Translations under genes and position numbers: made by a program
From: Sacculina carcini
Lineage: Eukaryota > Arthropoda > Thecostraca > Sacculinidae
Length of the DNA stretch: 64,000 bases
Direction of reading: 5' to 3'
Assembly (NCBI GenBank): GCA_916048095.2
Contig: OU696584.1
Location: 2,623,317 to 2,687,316 of the forward strand
The notes under the pieces: generated by a model
What the model was told of the DNA's origin: nothing
Databases searched by the model: none
Seen by the model: only the letters and a program-made list of their open reading frames with translations
In this document: in pieces, positions 214 to 35,205 of the stretch
Position numbering within the stretch: the first letter of the stretch is position 1
Layout: each line of letters begins with the position of its first letter

Positions 214-3200
214 AGCGACGACACACATGACACACAGACATACAAAGATACACAGACACAGACAGACAGACATACATACATACAGACAGACACACAGACA
301 TAAGCACGGGCAACTTGACGTTCGCTCAGCTCCATGACGCGTATCAAATGAACATATCAAATGAATCCTCACATATCAAATGAACAAATCGAAATGCACG
401 CAACGCAAATACCAAGCCCATAACAGTAGCATTTCATTGACCTTGGCCATGAATTTGTTCAAATTGTTCTGCGAGATAGCCTCCTCCTTCAACGTGTTCC
501 AAGTAGACACAGTGGCCGGAAAAAAGCACCGTTGGAATTGCTTTGTACGACAACGAATTGGAGCCATGCACTGGGAATGCTGTTTGGACGTAAACCGTGT
601 GCTTCTTGCTGCCACGAAATCATCAGCAATTTACTTGCTCATCGGATGATGGTCGTTGTGCTTGATCTTGTACAGCATGCACACGCCGCTGACCTTTCGA
701 CGATGGCCAAGATCACCAAGAACCAAGTCACCACAGAGGAACTTGCAAGTTCTAACAACTCTGTTGATGAGCTTGAGGTGACAATCCGCAGCAGAAGACC
801 ACACGGGGGCGCAGTACTCCAGAATTGGCAAAATGAAACAGCGAACACAACTTTTTGAGATTGTGCTGCTACCGAACATCCTATATGCCTTCCTTATAAT
901 TCCCAGTTTACGCGATGCCGAACAAACTAGCTTCCTAATGTGACTCTCAAATGTCAGTTTTGAGTCTACATGTACTCCAAATATTTTGACCTCATCACAC
1001 AAGCTGAGTTGGGCGCTATTTATGAGGATAGCTCCATGTGAAGGTTGAAAAGTGCGTGACCTAGAAACCGACAAGCTTTTATATTTCGAAGTGTTCAGCA
1101 TCATATTCCACCTCTCACACCACTTCAGGACGCTGCTGAGATCGTCGTTGACCGTTTGACGCACCTGTGGTTTGTCCGATGGAGATGAAATTACAGCCAC
1201 CAAGGTGATATCATTAGCATAACCATATACAGGGTTGCGTGTGCTTATGTACAGGTCAGCGGTGTAAATTTCGAACAAAATAGGACCCAATACACTTCCC
1301 TGCGGGACACCGGACACAATGTTCTGCCAGCGACTGTATGCTCCATCGATGAAAGCACGTTGTACGCGATTGGAGAGAAATTGATGCAAAACAATCAGCA
1401 AGCGGCCGCCGATTCCAATGTTTCTCAGTTTTTGCAACAGACCCTGGTGGCTCACACTGTCCAATGCTGCCGAGAAATCCAACTGCACAATCCAGGCTTC
1501 ACTGCCTTTGTCTAGCACTTGCTGGAGCTCGTGCGTGATAGTAAGCAGAGCGTCAGTAGTGCTGAGTTTTAAGCGGTATGCAAATTGGTTTTCCGACAGC
1601 AGATTGTTGCTCTCCAGGACAGACTGGAAGATATGAAGATTTTGGCTCGAATATTGAAGATATAAAGATATGAAGGCTCGAATATTTTGGACAGAATCGG
1701 CGTAATTGATATCGGCCGGTAGTTTGCAGCATCAGCTGAATTGGTTCCTTTTGGTATGGGCGTGATATTCGCAACCCGCCAACAGGATGGAAACGAACCA
1801 GTCTTCATCAAGCGCCTGAAAACAGCACTAAGCTTCGGAGCTAGAGTATCTGCTTTGTTCTTGAAAAATAGCGGAAACATATTCAGAGGGTCTGTTCCTC
1901 CATTGGTTATTTGCTCAATGCATCAATGGGGTATTCCTTCTGCAGCAAGTTTGAAACTTGAATGGCTTTCAATACATCATTCACCTTCACCCAGTCAGCA
2001 TTGAACTTCATGTGCACGAGCCTTGAAATCGAGTAAGGAGAAACCTTCTGTCTCAATGTCAACTTCGCGGACAGCGACGAGTGATCTGAACTTACTATTG
2101 GAGCTTCCACGTTTACACTCACGATATCTGAGACGTCTGTCATAACCAAGTCCAGTTTGCCGCTTGATGTGTGGGACCGGACACCATTTGGGAACAGCCA
2201 GAAATGTTGCAGAAATCATATGCTGCTCTACCATGGGCGTCTGTAGGGGATGTCGACAAGAGCAACTCACGGTGATGGGCGTTTATGTCCCCCACAAATA
2301 CAAACGCTGACTTGGTGTCCTTCTCCTAAATTGTTGACATGGCTGACAAGAGACATTCATAGATAGAGTCGTTACTGTCTGTATTTCGGTAGTCTCCAAT
2401 GATGTAAAAATTCATCAACGCAGGTGTTGACACGCAGCAGCATAACTCCATGACAAGTGCAGTCGTGAGCTGTAATTCTCGTTGCTGAAAAGCATTTGCG
2501 TACGTACACTGCCATGCCACGCCGCCTGTTTTTGAGTCACGTTTCGGCACAGATAACGATGTCCTTGGAGCGACTCGCTGCTGTCAAATGTCTGATATTC
2601 TTATACAAGCATCTGATGTTGACGAAAAGTATATTTGAAAATCGTGTTTGTGGTCGAGCAGGACCGGGATTCATTTCAACATCGCCACACATCATCAGCA
2701 GAAGCGACAAATCCACGGTGTGAGAAGGCACACACACAACGCAAAACAAACATACAAATAAACACATAATGCACGACGCATGCGAGCACAAAAACACAAC
2801 ACATAACACATGCATACGAAATGTCACAACAAAAAACAAGCATACAACACACACAATACAAAGCAAACATACACACAAATACACACACAACAAGGAAAAC
2901 ACTAGAAAACACATGTGAGAACAATTTATTGAGAGCTCATTGTTGAGCACATATCGCAAGGCAAAATGTCCAATGGGCGACAACAAAGACAGAGTATGAG
3001 AGCAACACAGAATTAGTTGGCACCTCAGTGCGAGGAAAGAGCTGGGCGCTGACGGAAAACGGGAAAACCGGCCGTTAGCCGTCGGGGCGGGGATACAATT
3101 TTCAGCCCGCCACATCAACAAGCCAGACATGAGGCAGAAAATAATACATATATTCATGAACAGCACTTATATTTATAGACAAAGTTAAATTAAATAATAT

Positions 3201-7855: not shown

Positions 7856-8152
7856 CCGCCTCGTAGCCGAGTGGCTAAGACACACGCTCTGTGCACGAAA
7901 GGTCCAGGGTTCGATTCCCTGGCGAGGTGAAACGGATGGGTTCGTTTCCTAAAGTGATATCCCAAATGCCGCAAGGCGGGCTTCGTGTGTGCGCAGCCGT
8001 ACAGTTTTCTGTGCTGGCCGTGACTGCGATAACCTGTGTGTGGCGGCCGGACCTGCGGTGTGCCAGCCGGGGCCGTGAGGCTTTGCCCCCGCAAAATTAC
8101 ACGCGAACACAGCCTTCTCTACTGCTGTGTTCAAATGCGTAATTATTATTAT
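7856..8152 (+). mobile_element. tRNA-derived SINE with (ATT)n tail
   Basis: A 297-bp insert flanked by a perfect 6-bp TSD, TATAGT (7850-7855 and 8153-8158). The head is tRNA-like with A and B boxes, the body is unrelated and GC-rich, and the tail is ATTATTATT. The matching element at 61975-63232 shows the uninterrupted site (GGTATAGTACGATG near 62460), which fixes both ends of the insertion. Confidence 0.9.
7858..7929 (+). ncRNA. tRNA-like head of the SINE (Pol III promoter)
   Basis: It begins GCCTCGTAGCCGAGTGGCTA (A-box-like) and contains GGTTCGATTCC (perfect B box). The ends GCCTCGT and GCGAGGT can pair as an acceptor stem, and CCAGG/CCTGG pair as the T stem. The A-box region resembles Ser/Leu tRNAs. 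The anticodon arm does not fold well, so this is a SINE promoter and not a working tRNA gene. Confidence 0.75.
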
Positions 8153-29400: not shown

Positions 29401-30540
29401 TTATTTGTGTGATGATAGAGGTGATTGAGTATTGGATGATTTTTTTGCTTGTTTATTTATTTTTCTTGCGCGTGTATGCTACCCTGGGTGTCTTGGTAGT
29501 ATTCGTGGAGATGGTTGATGTGGGTTCGGGAGTGGAATAGGAGTGATCAGAGGACCCTGACTCATTTCTTTGAGCCGGTGTGTTCATTTTGTTGGCGTTT
29601 TCATCGGCAGAGCCGGTAGTGGGATCTTCAGCGGTGTCCTTGCTGGTGTTGTCCTGAGATGAGGTTTCGATGGGACGCGGCAACTCCGTCTGATGTTCAG
29701 TGGTGAGGGCGGTTGGTGTGGCACAAGGTGATGGTGCTGGGAAGTTTTTCACCAATGTCGCTACGACAGTAGTGAGTTGCGTCACTGATTCAGAAAGGAA
29801 TGCCAATTGCTGTTGCATTTTGATTAGCTCTGGTGATGGCGAGCTTTCAACTGGTTGATGTTGTTGTTGCTGTTAGTGTTGTTGGTAGTGTTTTCTAGCC
29901 ACGGCGGCGGTCGATGTTGTGTTGACCTTCTCGACTGCGGATTCGGCGTCATGGTATGAGGATTTGGTCCTGTATTGGTATTCGAGGATCTATTTTTCCT
30001 GTATATATCTTTTACATGTCATTGAGGTAGCTTGATGTTCGCCACCGCAGTTCACACAGTGAAAGGAGCACTCATCTTGATGAGATTTCTCCCCACATTT
30101 CAAGCACGATGATGGTTTTGTGCACTTGTCCCTTTTGTGGCCGATGTGGCCACAGTTATTATTATTATTATTATTAATTACAGGCAAATCCAGTAGCATG
30201 GGAAGAGTGCAAGCACTATTACCACCCTAAGGTGGCCCCATGTACCGGAAGCGCCCAAAAGATTAAGAGAGAAAGAGAGTTCGAAGAGAAATAAGTCTAG
30301 AAAGAGAGTTGGAAAGAAAATAATAAATAAATAACAATAAATAATAAACCATCATCCGATAACAATCCATAATGTCACTCCGCCCACGTTCCTCAATAAA
30401 TAATAACAATCAACAATAAATATGTGATTCATTAAAAAACAGCCATCAATAAATAAGAATAAATATTAATAAATAAGTAATAAATAACAATCAAGAACAA
30501 TACATATGATTCAAAAAAGAAACATCCAACAATAAATATA

Positions 30541-30760
30541 AATATGATTCAATAAGTAACAACAACACAAATAAATATGATTCAATAAACAATAACACCA
30601 ATAATTATGATTCAATAAACAACAACAACAATAAATATGATTCAATAAACAGCAACAACAATAAATATGATTCAATAAACAACAACAACAATAAATATGA
30701 CTCAATAAACAGCAACAACAATAAATATGATTCAATAAACAACAACAGCCAACACTGAGT
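30541..30760 (-). repeat. 30-bp minisatellite in the LINE-A copy 2 3' UTR
   Basis: About seven units, approximately ATAAATATGATTCAATAAAC plus AACAACAACA. The minus-strand open frame with LLNHIYCCCC repeats is a by-product of the 30-bp period. Confidence 0.9.
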
Positions 30761-30916
30761 AAAAGTATAATTTAATAAATAACAACAACCAATGATAAAT
30801 AGTAATAAATAGAGAGTAAAATAGGAATAAATATAAATAAATAGAAAATAAATAACAATAAGCATGAATAAATAACAATAAATATGAATAAATATACAAT
30901 TAATAAGACTCAACAG

Positions 30917-33900
30917 TCAATTCCGCTCTTTCAGTAGCATTTCATTTACTTTGGCCTTGAATTTGTTCAAATTGTTCTGCAAGAAAGCCTCCTCCTTCAA
31001 CGTGTTCCAAGTAGACACAGTGGCCGGAAGAAAGCAACGTTGGAATTGTTTTGTACGACAACGAATTGGAGCCATGCACTGGGAATGCTGTTTGGATGTA
31101 AACCGTGTGCTTCTTGCTGCCACGAAATCATCAGGAATTGACTTGCTCATCGGATGATGGTCGTTGTGCTTGATTTTGTACAGCATGCACACACTGCTGA
31201 CCTTTCGACGATGGCAAAGATCACCAAGAACCAAGTCACCACAGAGGAACTTGCAAGTTCTAACAACTCTGTTGATGAGATTGAGGTGACAATCCGCAGC
31301 AGAAGACCACACGGGGGCGCAGTACTCCAGAATTGGCAAAATGAAACAGCGAAAACAACTTTTTGAGATTGTGCTGCTACCGAACATCCGATATGCCTTT
31401 CTTATAATTCCCAGTTTCCGCGATGCCGAACAAACTAGCTTCCGAATGTGACTCTCAAACGTGAGCTTTGAGTCTACATGTACTCCCAATATTTTGAGCT
31501 CATCACACACGTTGAGTTGGGCGTCATTTATGAGGATAGCTCCATGTGAAGGCTGAACGGTACGTGACCTAGAAACCAACAAGCATTTAGATTTCGAAGT
31601 GTTCAGCATCATATTCCACCTCTCACACCACTTCAGGACGCTGCTGAGATCGTCGTTGACCGTTTGACGCACCTGTGGTCTGTCCGAAGGAGATGAAATT
31701 ACAGCCATCAAGGTGATATCATCAGCATATCCATATACAGGGTTGCGTGTGGTTGTGTACAGGTCAGCGGTGTAAATGTTGAACAAAATAGGACCCAACA
31801 CACTTCCCTGCGGGACACCGGACGCAATGCTCTGCCAGCCACTGTATGCTCCATCGATGGCAACACGTTGTACGCGATTGGATAGAAATTGATGCAAAAC
31901 ACTTAGCAAACGGCCGCCGACTCCAATCTTTCTCAGTTTTTGCAACAAGCCCTGGTGGCTCACACGGTCAAATGCTGCCGAGAAATCCAACTGCACAATC
32001 CAGGCTTCACTGCCTTTGTCTAGCACTTGCTGGAGCTCATGCGTGATAGTAAGCAGAGCGTCAGTCGTGCTGAGTTTTTTGCGGTATGCAAATTGGTTTT
32101 CCGACAGCAGATTGTTGCTCTCCAGGTACTTGGACAGTCTGGAAGATATCAAGTGCTCGAATATTTTGGACAGAATCGGCGTAATTGATATTGGCCGGTA
32201 GTTTGCAACATCAGCTGAATTGGTTCCTTTTGGTATGGGCGTGATATTCGCAACCCGCCAACATGATGGAAACGAACCAGTCTTCATCAAGCGCCTGAAA
32301 AGAGCACTGAGCTTCGGAGCTAGAGTATCTGCCGTGTTCTTGAAAAATAACGGAAACATATTCAGAGGGTCTGTTCCTCCGTGGGCATCAAGGTCTTTCA
32401 TGAGATTCGCCACTTCTTTTGATCGGAAGGCAATGCCTTTGATTTTCGGGGCGAGGACAGATGAATCGTCAGACGGAATGGACCCTTGACATTGCTTGGT
32501 ATTGAAGTAATCCATAAGCAACTCTGCCTTCTCTGTTGGGTTGATTTTGAGCTCACCGTTCGCTGAAAATAAAGGAGGGACAGACAGGTCATGTCCAAAC
32601 ACTGACGATTTCAACGTTGACCACCATTTGTGGGCGTCATTGGCAGATGTTAGCTTTTCAGCAAGTTTCTTTGAGTGACGTGTTTCCGCTTCTGAATACA
32701 CATGCTCAGCATGCCGTCTGGCCTCAGTGTAGACATTCCATGAATCGGCTGAGCGTGATTGGAGCCACTTGTGGTAAGCCTCCTGCTTGGATTCACGAGC
32801 GCTGCGACATTCGTTGGTGAACCAGGCTTTGTCATCAGAGCGAAAACGTAGTTTTTTAGTAGGCACTCTCCTTGAGATGACATCGGTAATGTATTTGTTC
32901 AATGCATCAATGGGGCATTCCTTCTGCTGCAGATTTGAAACTTTAATTGCTTTCAATTCATCATTCACCTTCACCCAGTCAACATTGTTCTTCATGTGCA
33001 CGAGCCTTGAAATCGTGTAAGGAGAAACCTTCTGTCTCAATGTCAACTTCACGGACAGCGACGAGTGATCTGAACTTCCTATTGGAGCTTCCACGCTTAC
33101 ACTCACGATATCTGAGACGTCTGTCATAACCAAGTCCAAACAGTTTCCCGCTTGATGTGTGGGACCGGACACCATTTGGGAGCAGCCAGAAATGTTGCAG
33201 AAATCATATGCTGCTCTACCATGAGCGTCTGTAGGAGATGTCGACAAGAGCCACTCACGGTGATGGGCGTTCATGTCTCCCACAAATACAAATGCTGACT
33301 TGGTGTCCTTCTCCTGAATTGTTGACATGGCTGACAAGAGACATTCGTAGATAGAGTCGTTACTGTCTGGATTTCGGTAGGCTCCAAAGATGTAAAAATT
33401 CATCAAGGCGGTGTTGACACGCAGCAGCATAAATTCATGACAAGTGCAGTCGTGAGCTTTAATTCTCGTTGCTGAAAAGCCTTTGCGTACGTACACTGCC
33501 ATGCCACGCCGCCTGTTTTTTGAGTCACGTTTGATTAGCAATGGCTTACTGAAACCTGGCATCAAGAGCTCAGATTGGTCCCGATAATCGGACACAAGCG
33601 TTTCGGCTAAGATAACGATGTCTTTGGAGCGACTGGCTGCTGTCAAATCTCTGATGTTCTTATACAAGCCCCTGATGTTGGCGAAAAGTATATTTGAAAA
33701 TCGTTTTTGTGGTCGAGCAGGACCGGGATTCATTTCAACATCGCCACACATCATCAGTAAAAACGACAAATCCACGGTGTGAGAAGGCACACACACAACG
33801 CAAAGCAGACATACAAATAAACACATAATGCACGACGCATGCGAACACAAAAACACAACACATAACACATGCATACGAAATTTCACAACAAAAAACAAGC

Positions 33901-33943
33901 ATACAACACACAATACAAAGCAAACATACACACAAATACACAC
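30917..33943 (-). CDS. LINE-A protein: hydrophobic leader, 2A peptide, APE endonuclease, reverse transcriptase
   Basis: Open frame of 1008 codons. Residues 1-66 are hydrophobic and Cys/Val-rich. GDVEMNPGP at 67-75 is a perfect 2A motif, which would separate the leader from the enzyme at Gly74/Pro75 during translation or leave an uncut signal. The endonuclease follows (about 82-300), with AETL (E114), VGDMNAHHREW (D223, N225) and SSDHSSL (D292, H293). The RT is about 560-810: LDFSAAFDR (D653), GVPQGSVLGP and GYADDITL (D741, D742). All visible catalytic residues are present, so the enzyme could be active. In copy 1 the leader extends upstream in frame to MLFMNI. Here that longer start (34220) is out of frame through a small change in the simple-sequence tract, so the true start is uncertain. 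Confidence 0.92.
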   Translation of the reverse strand: MCICVYVCFVLCVVCLFFVVKFRMHVLCVVFLCSHASCIMCLFVCLLCVVCVPSHTVDLSFLLMMCGDVEMNPGPARPQKRFSNILFANIRGLYKNIRDLTAASRSKDIVILAETLVSDYRDQSELLMPGFSKPLLIKRDSKNRRRGMAVYVRKGFSATRIKAHDCTCHEFMLLRVNTALMNFYIFGAYRNPDSNDSIYECLLSAMSTIQEKDTKSAFVFVGDMNAHHREWLLSTSPTDAHGRAAYDFCNISGCSQMVSGPTHQAGNCLDLVMTDVSDIVSVSVEAPIGSSDHSSLSVKLTLRQKVSPYTISRLVHMKNNVDWVKVNDELKAIKVSNLQQKECPIDALNKYITDVISRRVPTKKLRFRSDDKAWFTNECRSARESKQEAYHKWLQSRSADSWNVYTEARRHAEHVYSEAETRHSKKLAEKLTSANDAHKWWSTLKSSVFGHDLSVPPLFSANGELKINPTEKAELLMDYFNTKQCQGSIPSDDSSVLAPKIKGIAFRSKEVANLMKDLDAHGGTDPLNMFPLFFKNTADTLAPKLSALFRRLMKTGSFPSCWRVANITPIPKGTNSADVANYRPISITPILSKIFEHLISSRLSKYLESNNLLSENQFAYRKKLSTTDALLTITHELQQVLDKGSEAWIVQLDFSAAFDRVSHQGLLQKLRKIGVGGRLLSVLHQFLSNRVQRVAIDGAYSGWQSIASGVPQGSVLGPILFNIYTADLYTTTRNPVYGYADDITLMAVISSPSDRPQVRQTVNDDLSSVLKWCERWNMMLNTSKSKCLLVSRSRTVQPSHGAILINDAQLNVCDELKILGVHVDSKLTFESHIRKLVCSASRKLGIIRKAYRMFGSSTISKSCFRCFILPILEYCAPVWSSAADCHLNLINRVVRTCKFLCGDLVLGDLCHRRKVSSVCMLYKIKHNDHHPMSKSIPDDFVAARSTRFTSKQHSQCMAPIRCRTKQFQRCFLPATVSTWNTLKEEAFLQNNLNKFKAKVNEMLLKERN
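33719..33745 (-). other. 2A ribosome-skipping motif
   Basis: Encodes GDVEMNPGP, fitting D-V/I-E-x-N-P-G-P. The same nine residues occur in copy 1 (2660-2686). 2A motifs at the N-terminus of CR1-type LINEs in marine invertebrates have been reported. Confidence 0.9.
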
Positions 33944-34694
33944 ACAAGAAAAACACTAGAAAACACATGTGAGAACAATTTATTGAGAGCTCATTGTTAA
34001 ACACATATCGCAAGGCAAAATGTCCAATGGGCGACCACAAAGACAGAGTATGAGAGCAACACAGAATTAGTTGGCACCTCAGTGCGAGGAAAGAGGTGGG
34101 CGCTGACGGAAAACGGGAAAACCGGCCGTTAGCCGTCGGGGCGGGGCTACAATTTTCGGCCCGCCACATCAACAAAACAGACATGAGACAGAAAATAATA
34201 AATATATCCATGAACAACACTTATGTTTATAGACAAAGTTAAATTAAATAATATACAAACTGAACTGAAAAGTGACGAAAAAGAATGTGATGAGAGAATT
34301 CAGCAGGAAGATTGCAAAGCAACTATGGCTGCGAACCCTGATTCTCAATCACATTCAGAAACAAAATATAAAAATTCAAATATATAACCTGAAATAAAAA
34401 AAGATTAATTGACTTAAAAGTCTTAAACAGTCTTAAAAGTAAATGAATGAGCTCGCAAGAAGAAAATATCCGCCTTTAAAAAGGCAAATATTATCAATGA
34501 ACAAAACGAGTAATGAAAAATCAAAATAACGCTAAATCAAATATAATAATAAAACAACTGAAATATAACTCAATGAACACTCAGCGTTAGCAGAAATCAG
34601 GATCTGTCGTCGGTGAGCGTCAGCGAAGCGTAGACAGCCGGGCGCGAACGAGCGACGGAAAACACGTGCACACTCAGCGAGGGTTAGTCAGAGA
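33944..34694 (-). other. LINE-A copy 2 5' region
   Basis: 5' UTR and upstream leader. An alternative frame (34220-33735) starts MLFMDIF as in copy 1 but does not reach the 2A motif in frame. It should contain the internal Pol II promoter; no core element is obvious. Confidence 0.6.
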
Positions 34695-35205
34695 CAGTTG
34701 TCGCAGATGGTCGGTTTCGGGTACCACGGCCGCACATCGTACTTGATGTAGTCGAACTTCAGTTCGGTCGGGCAGGAGAGACGGGAGAATGTCAGCATCA
34801 GCACGGGCGATGGTCTTTCCCGGCTGGACGATGGGGACGGCGGACCTCGGTGACTCCGAAATCCTTCATCCATTCATTGAGTTCGTCGATCGGAATGTCA
34901 ATGAGGTCTGGTGCGTACACTGAGCCTTTGGTGTAGTTCAGTGTTATGTGAAGGCTGATGTTCGCCTCTAGTCCTCCGATAGTCGTCTGGGAAAGAAATA
35001 ATTTGGTTTGTTTTTCGCATGTCGTTTTGACCAGAAGTTGACCGCCTTTGATGATCTTCACGCTTTCGGCCTTGGTCGGTGTGATGTTACGAATAGCTCT
35101 CTCAATTTTTGGCCATCCTAGGCTGTTGATAGTTTCTGTATTTGTTTTGATGAGGATAAAAGCGCCCTCATCGGGTACGCCATCAGAGAAAAATGTGGGG
35201 TCAAC

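What the first reader, a model, noticed from the sequence alone, without database searches (positions are those of the whole stretch)
30917..33943. 2A peptide behind a hydrophobic leader at the front of a LINE protein
The LINE-A ORF reads hydrophobic leader, GDVEMNPGP (33719-33745), then APE endonuclease and RT. The same nine residues are kept in decayed copy 1 (2660-2686), so the motif was under selection in the family. In other animals, 2A motifs at the start of CR1-type LINEs are known and some act as signal sequences when not cleaved. Here the leader has several hydrophobic runs and no separate ORF1 is present, so the leader peptide may be the only other product of the element.
Basis: partly seen in the sequence, partly recalled or inferred. 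Interest (0 to 1): 0.75.

Follow-up and report, generated by a model that had tools for sequence, protein, structure and literature searches.

The report
2A skip site in crustacean LINE
A recently active jumping gene of a probably barnacle-like crustacean carries, between a hydrophobic leader and its copying enzyme, a peptide signal of the kind that makes ribosomes release one protein and start the next; the arrangement is of a known kind, but the leader is about twice as long as it looks in this copy, which has a small deletion.

Summary
The 2A motif is real. GDVEMNPGP lies exactly where stated, and its pattern has 217 exact matches in the genome (reversed control 0). Of 120 protein relatives listed, 93 carry a 2A core or close variant near the N-terminus. 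Skipping itself was not tested.

The leader was misread. The window copy has a 2-nt deletion near 33905. In 22 of 32 other copies spanning start to stop, one ORF of about 1,098 aa begins MDICIIFCLMSV and reads 157-aa leader - 2A - endonuclease - RT. The start at 33943 belongs to this damaged copy; the family ATG is 34211.

The hydrophobic runs are what T-rich DNA gives: the LINE-A leader equals its dinucleotide shuffles (z=0.2), and another 2A LINE family in this genome has a leader of little hydrophobicity. Best reading: 2A sheds a variable, 5'UTR-like extension, so the enzyme always begins with Pro, without a second ORF. Dual targeting, known from sea-urchin NLRs, stays open.

2A in single-ORF LINEs is already published (Odon 2013; not held, content recalled). 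New member of a known kind.

The parts
30155..34695 (-). full-length LINE-A copy (about 4.54 kb) ending in (TAA)n, inserted in the ORF1 zinc knuckle of another LINE; short target duplication, probably AACTGT
   Evidence: many copies share the 5' end at 34695 and the same 3' end; junctions read directly
34212..34695 (-). 5'UTR, 484 nt, T-rich (45% T in its last 471 nt in L048); one upstream ATG in L048, a start-stop ATGTGA
   Evidence: ATGTGA in 26 of the 26 full-length copies covering that place
34209..34211 (-). family start codon, context TTCATGG
   Evidence: of 33 full-length copies 27 have TTGTTCATGG, 5 a one-base variant, 1 is partly covered; all 22 intact ORFs start here
33743..34211 (-). 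leader, 157 codons in the reference copy up to the Gly before DVEMNPGP; broken here by a 2-nt deletion near 33905, so its N-terminal half lies in the frame that stops at 33737-33735
33719..33745 (-). 2A/StopGo core GDVEMNPG|P behind LLMMCG (whose Gly is the first residue here)
30917..33721 (-). APE endonuclease and reverse transcriptase, beginning with the Pro of NPG|P
   Evidence: Pfam PF03372, PF14529, PF00078
30155..30916 (-). 3'UTR with a 30-bp tandem array (30527-30747) and a (TAA)n tail
   Evidence: copies differ by 30 or 60 nt
2660..2686 (-). second copy of the motif, in a decayed LINE-A copy (L050)

Best explanation
LINE-A makes one polyprotein of about 1,098 aa from one ORF: a 157-aa leader plus DVEMNPG (164 aa), then endonuclease-RT starting with Pro (934 aa). 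Shown: this architecture in most full-length copies, conservation of the 2A core and of an L-rich upstream hexapeptide, weak signs of purifying selection on the leader as coding sequence, no other ORF of note. Inferred: the nascent LLMMCG-DVEMNPG chain stalls the ribosome at the Gly-Pro step, the leader is released and translation goes on to give endonuclease-RT with a constant Pro N-terminus. Inferred further: the leader is mainly an N-terminal extension drawn from T-rich 5' sequence, and 2A makes it dispensable by shedding it; start codon, length and sequence of the leader can then drift, and the enzyme is spared a hydrophobic anchor. On this reading the leader need not be a functional ORF1 substitute.
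For: 217 exact motif copies, control 0. 22 of 32 loci spanning ATG to stop have the uninterrupted leader-2A-enzyme ORF, all from the same ATG. NPGP invariant in the 16 sequences I aligned, query included; motif or close variant in 93 of 120 relatives, 92 of them at 44-58% identity and one at 27%. Upstream hexapeptide mostly L-L-L-L-(S/C/A)-G-like; PMC12846837 (section 10) found one member of its L-rich classes active in vitro. Variants shared by 3 or more of 67 copies: leader 14 synonymous, 17 non-synonymous, no stop (p=0.019 against mutational expectation); ORF2 25, 22, none (p=8e-5). For shedding rather than targeting: annotated leader length 2-108 aa in 41 representatives, sequences unlike each other by eye; leader make-up of relatives fits translation of random 47%-T DNA (r=0.963); LINE-A leader hydropathy equals shuffles (z=0.2) and is like that of other frames; the PHD-type 2A LINE family of this genome keeps 2A behind a leader of little hydrophobicity.
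Against: No translation data. The selection test on the leader is weak (31 variants, copies not independent). In 33 full-length copies frame-breaking indels are about six times denser in the leader than in ORF2 (19 against 3 per 100 kb, p=0.04) and sparser than in the 5'UTR only at p=0.07 (63 per 100 kb); the share of 3n indels does not differ significantly from the 5'UTR (p=0.13); 2 of 5 leader indels shared by two or more copies break the frame. LINE-A's own leader fits the random-DNA model less well than relatives do (r=0.847), and T is slightly highest at codon position 2 (0.43, 0.47, 0.41). In 36 of 39 representatives with 12 or more leader residues the best 15-residue window is TM-like, as targeting would also predict. 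T-richness could itself be kept by selection for hydrophobic residues. Eight relatives share an 18-residue leader segment, which pure drift does not predict.
Confidence: 0.6

Rival explanations
1. Dual targeting: the leader is a signal or anchor sequence. Chains that skip give soluble endonuclease-RT; chains that do not skip give a membrane-bound fusion at the ER or nuclear envelope, as shown for a sea-urchin NLR 2A leader.
For: Hydrophobic core right after the start (MDICIIFCLMSVLLMW) and TM-like windows in 36 of 39 relatives; same arrangement as SpNLR2A6, whose leader, translated from the primer in PMC4981915, has mean hydropathy 1.63 and works both as 2A and as signal. PMC2978324 reports that ER translocation of the upstream chain can inhibit 2A.
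Against: Hydrophobicity is not above the composition null; the PHD-type 2A family in the same genome has little of it. In short leaders (20 residues up to the Gly in P0006) the chain should still be inside the ribosome when skipping is decided, so SRP could not act first (inference). No signal-peptide predictor was available.
Confidence: 0.22
2. The leader is a second functional product, a short ORF1-like protein that acts in the RNP or at membranes.
For: 157 codons open in most full-length copies and weakly constrained; Cys-rich (22 of 157, 16 of them in the last 82).
Against: No Pfam domain (best E 3.9); relatives have leaders of very different length, P0006 only 13 residues, and of different sequence.
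Confidence: 0.1
3. The motif is retained but skipping is not the point; the enzyme is made by internal initiation or reinitiation at the AUG that codes the Met of DVEMNPGP.
For: In this window copy the shifted leader stops at UGA 33737-33735, one base before that AUG (33733-33731), a layout that could allow reinitiation.
Against: Met at that position in only 3 of the 93 relatives with the motif; intact copies read straight through.
Confidence: 0.04
4. Chance motif in a decayed repeat.
For: None found.
Against: 217 copies with 0 in the reversed control; conserved in relatives at about half identity.
Confidence: 0.01

Closest known systems
2A-bearing single-ORF APE-type non-LTR retrotransposons (Odon et al. 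2013, Mol Biol Evol 30:1955; not held; seen as a reference only, content recalled)
   Same: APE endonuclease and RT, 2A near the N-terminus, no separate ORF1
   Different: host probably a barnacle-like crustacean; 157-aa leader and many young copies; clade not tested here
SpNLR2A leaders of Strongylocentrotus purpuratus NLR proteins (PMC4981915; abstract, first part of results, discussion and passages read)
   Same: N-terminal hydrophobic leader running directly into D(V/I)ExNPGP
   Different: 26-aa leader on an immune receptor; activity and targeting measured there, not here
[quoted passage not shown] Heras et al. 2006 itself not held)
   Same: 2A in frame in a LINE ORF
   Different: other hosts; details recalled only
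Viral StopGo sites of the L-rich upstream class (PMC12846837; abstract, sections 9 and 10 and passages read)
   Same: L-rich hexapeptide ending (A/S/C)G before the core; core D(V/I)ExNPGP
   Different: viral polyprotein context

Membership tests
2A/StopGo element | core D(V/I)ExNPGP | tested here: met
   DVEMNPGP
2A/StopGo element | upstream hexapeptide of a known active class | tested here: met
   LLMMCG against the L-rich class ending (A/S/C)G in PMC12846837; compared by eye
2A/StopGo element | core in frame between an upstream start and a downstream protein | tested here: met
   22 of 32 other copies; not met in the window copy from its main ATG
2A/StopGo element | two products without the Gly-Pro bond | not testable with these tools
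   needs a translation assay
APE-type non-LTR retrotransposon | APE endonuclease followed by RT in one ORF | tested here: met
APE-type non-LTR retrotransposon | hallmarks of target-primed insertion: simple 3' tail, 5' truncations, short target duplication | tested here: met
   (TAA)n tail and AACTGT on both sides of this one copy; several 5'-truncated copies
single-ORF 2A LINE | no separate ORF1 in full-length copies | tested here: met
   484-nt 5'UTR; one start-stop upstream ATG in L048
CR1 clade | RT phylogeny within CR1 | not tested
2A signal sequence (SpNLR2A type) | hydrophobic N-terminal leader abutting 2A | tested here: met
2A signal sequence (SpNLR2A type) | hydrophobicity beyond what base composition gives | tested here: not met
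   z=0.2 for LINE-A, 0.7-1.0 for the DIETNPGP family
2A signal sequence (SpNLR2A type) | routes the unskipped protein into the ER | not testable with these tools
   needs a localisation assay

The most novel reading that the evidence does not exclude
A whole clade of animal LINEs uses 2A as an N-terminal shedding device: any T-rich 5' extension may precede the enzyme, because ribosome skipping restores one constant Pro N-terminus. When skipping fails, the extension anchors the enzyme at the ER or nuclear envelope, so 2A efficiency sets how much endonuclease-RT is free to reach chromatin.
Probability: 0.25. Interest if true: 0.65.

Novelty: new member of a known kind. Interest (0 to 1): 0.38.

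Why it matters
It gives a young, multi-copy LINE family with intact leader-2A-enzyme ORFs, and two contrasting 2A leader types in one genome, which makes the open question of what N-terminal 2A does for LINEs testable (shedding against dual targeting). It also shows that hydrophobic leaders in such elements need a base-composition null before they are called signal peptides.

Tried and rejected
Selection from motif retention in one decayed copy: uninformative at about 5% divergence. A separate ORF1 or an overlapping second gene: the other-frame ORF at 33735-34220 is the N-terminal part of the leader, out of frame in this copy. Three copies lacking the motif (L013, L025, L037) looked like leader swaps but are 5' truncations at one A-run just after it. 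DNA of relatives: viral contigs gave none; genome contigs gave 10 loci at 25-32% identity, none with the motif in the DNA held; so the composition test on relatives rests on fitted amino-acid frequencies (all motif-bearing relatives, not dereplicated). Host by COX1: no match. By one BiP exon: nearest named by identity are the barnacles Amphibalanus and Pollicipes at 90-91%, though four other proteins of 69-84% identity score higher in bits; 'barnacle-like crustacean' is likely, not proven. The third NPGP-like DNA match in the window (7901-7911): the frame I translated there has no 2A core. Limits: the endonuclease-probe set favours young copies (40 of 398 candidates scored); L051-L070 were picked from motif-pattern lists, 16 of 20 for variant spellings, so they say nothing on how often the motif is lost; annotated starts of relatives are choices of an ORF caller; the 217 and 326 counts are whole but only 100 places each were listed. 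L003=L049 and L006=L048 were counted once; test fetches L009 and L010 were left out.

Full report
Observation. In the genome behind the window (264 Mb, 43 contigs) the degenerate pattern for GDVEMNPGP has 217 exact matches and 0 in the reversed control; the wider D(V/I/M)ExNPGP pattern has 326 and 0.

The element. This copy sits inside the ORF1 zinc knuckle of another LINE (host ...CDNC | GHIGHKRDKC; read). Many copies share its 5' end at 34695 and its (TAA)n 3' end, so it is full length, about 4.54 kb, with endonuclease and RT behind the motif. Among L011-L049, found with an endonuclease probe that favours young copies, most are about 99% identical to it, so the family moved recently; the other copies fetched range up to 14% from L048.

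The leader was misread. Of the 39 copies L011-L049, 36 reach the motif: 32 GDVEMNPGP, 2 GDVEMNPGH (L038 and L039, perhaps one duplicated insertion), 1 DDVEMNPGP, 1 GDVEINPGL. Of 32 loci spanning start to stop, 22 have one uninterrupted ORF of at least 1,080 aa with NPGP, all starting MDICIIFCLMSV; L038 and L039 are uninterrupted too but have NPGH. Of 54 copies covering the leader, window included, 10 have a frame-breaking indel in it. The window copy is one: it lacks 2 nt near 33905, and from ATG 34211 it reads 158 codons to a stop at 33737-33735. So the 1,008-codon frame from 33943 is not what the family makes. The family leader has 157 codons (158 in some copies): a hydrophobic start of 16, a stretch of 59 with near-neutral hydropathy, and a hydrophobic part of 82 that holds 16 of the 22 Cys.

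Is the leader coding? Variants shared by three or more of 67 copies are 14 synonymous, 17 non-synonymous and no stop in the leader (p=0.019 against mutational expectation) and 25, 22 and none in ORF2 (p=8e-5). In 33 full-length copies frame-breaking indels per 100 kb are 63 in the 5'UTR, 19 in the leader, 3 in ORF2 and 148 in the 3'UTR (leader against 5'UTR p=0.07, against ORF2 p=0.04). The share of 3n indels is not significantly higher in the leader than in the 5'UTR (2 of 5 against 0 of 8, p=0.13; in all 67 copies 16 of 45 against 5 of 32), and 2 of 5 shared leader indels break the frame. The leader behaves as weakly constrained coding sequence.

Relatives. A protein search found 128 relatives (120 listed), the best at 57-58% identity, most without a name; one is named from the crab Petrolisthes cinctipes. 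93 of 120 have the 2A core or a close variant near the N-terminus, 92 at 44-58% identity and one at 27%. Of the 27 others, one starts inside the motif, one (P0036) reaches its place without it, 17 start after it, two have another N-terminus and six are distant at 24-31%. NPGP is invariant in the 16 sequences I chose to align, query included. Eight of the 93 have His in place of Glu at the third core position, a change that PMC12846837 found active in a viral site (section 9). The hexapeptide before the core is mostly L-L-L-L-S-G-like, a class of which that paper tested one member, active (section 10).

Why hydrophobic? The LINE-A leader is 44% T; its hydropathy equals that of its dinucleotide shuffles (z=0.2) and is like that of its other frames. 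T is high at all three codon positions, slightly most at the second (0.43, 0.47, 0.41). The DIETNPGP family, by eye a relative in the same genome, gives z=0.7-1.0. Leader make-up in relatives fits translation of random 47%-T DNA with r=0.963, against 0.872 for the sequence behind the motif; LINE-A's own leader fits less well (0.847). A further family in the genome places 2A before a PHD-like finger (22.3 bits against a cut-off of 24), followed in one copy I checked by endonuclease and RT in the same open frame; 150 places match its front part, 28 of these rows with open frames above 1,200 codons and no stop. The five of its leaders that I measured are 20-28% T and of little hydrophobicity. So N-terminal 2A does not need a strongly hydrophobic leader, and the hydrophobicity seen here is by itself no evidence of targeting. 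It does not exclude targeting: 36 of 39 relatives have a TM-like 15-residue window, and a sea-urchin NLR leader of the same build does both jobs (PMC4981915).

Mechanism. The likeliest reading is skipping at Gly-Pro, releasing a 164-aa leader and a 934-aa endonuclease-RT that begins with Pro. What the element gains is inferred: a fixed enzyme N-terminus whatever precedes it, with no second ORF to start. If the N-terminal hydrophobic segment does recruit the ER before 2A is reached, possible here because the leader is long, PMC2978324 (abstract and passages) suggests that skipping could be inhibited, giving a membrane-bound pool.

Known or new. 2A in non-LTR retrotransposons is in print: passages of the reviews PMC5972666 and PMC11512398 say so, and Odon et al. 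2013 on APE-type, often single-ORF elements is cited in PMC11512398 and PMC12846837 but not held; its content is recalled. 2A signal leaders are in print for NLRs. My five searches of the held library listed no paper that I could tell describes this crustacean family or a composition test of such leaders; I judged from listings, and that library lacks most subscription papers. I rate it a new member of a known kind, with interest in the contrast of leader types.

Noticed in passing
L071-L082, L102; A second 2A LINE family in the genome places D(V/I)EPNPGP directly before a PHD-like zinc finger, with endonuclease and RT in the same frame, behind a leader of little hydrophobicity.
   Followed up: partly
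P0017, P0038, P0054, P0057, P0063, P0064, P0095, P0112: Eight relatives share an 18-residue leader segment (APSPQQxFxGQGVLRISG) although the rest of their leaders differs and 23 of 28 pairs are only 52-61% identical behind the motif; it may be a protein motif or a conserved DNA/RNA element.
   Followed up: partly
window 30140-30200 and 34690-35061: LINE-A is inserted in the zinc-knuckle part of ORF1 of another LINE on the same strand.
   Followed up: partly
L013, L025, L037: Three copies are 5'-truncated at the same A-run just after the motif, a possible preferred stop of reverse transcription.
   Followed up: partly
L088, L089: Two places on contig C6 carry GDVEENPGP followed by a different Cys-rich stretch (STCQICSG); nature unknown.
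   Followed up: no
window 30527-30747: The 3'UTR holds a 30-bp tandem array; LINE-A copies differ there by 30 or 60 nt.
   Followed up: partly
window 33731-33737: In this copy the shifted leader frame stops (UGA) one base before the AUG inside the 2A core, a layout that could allow reinitiation.
   Followed up: partly
relatives: Natural changes at core positions among 93: His for Glu in 8, Gln in 2, Asn in 1; His or Asp for the Asn of NPGP in 3.
   Followed up: no
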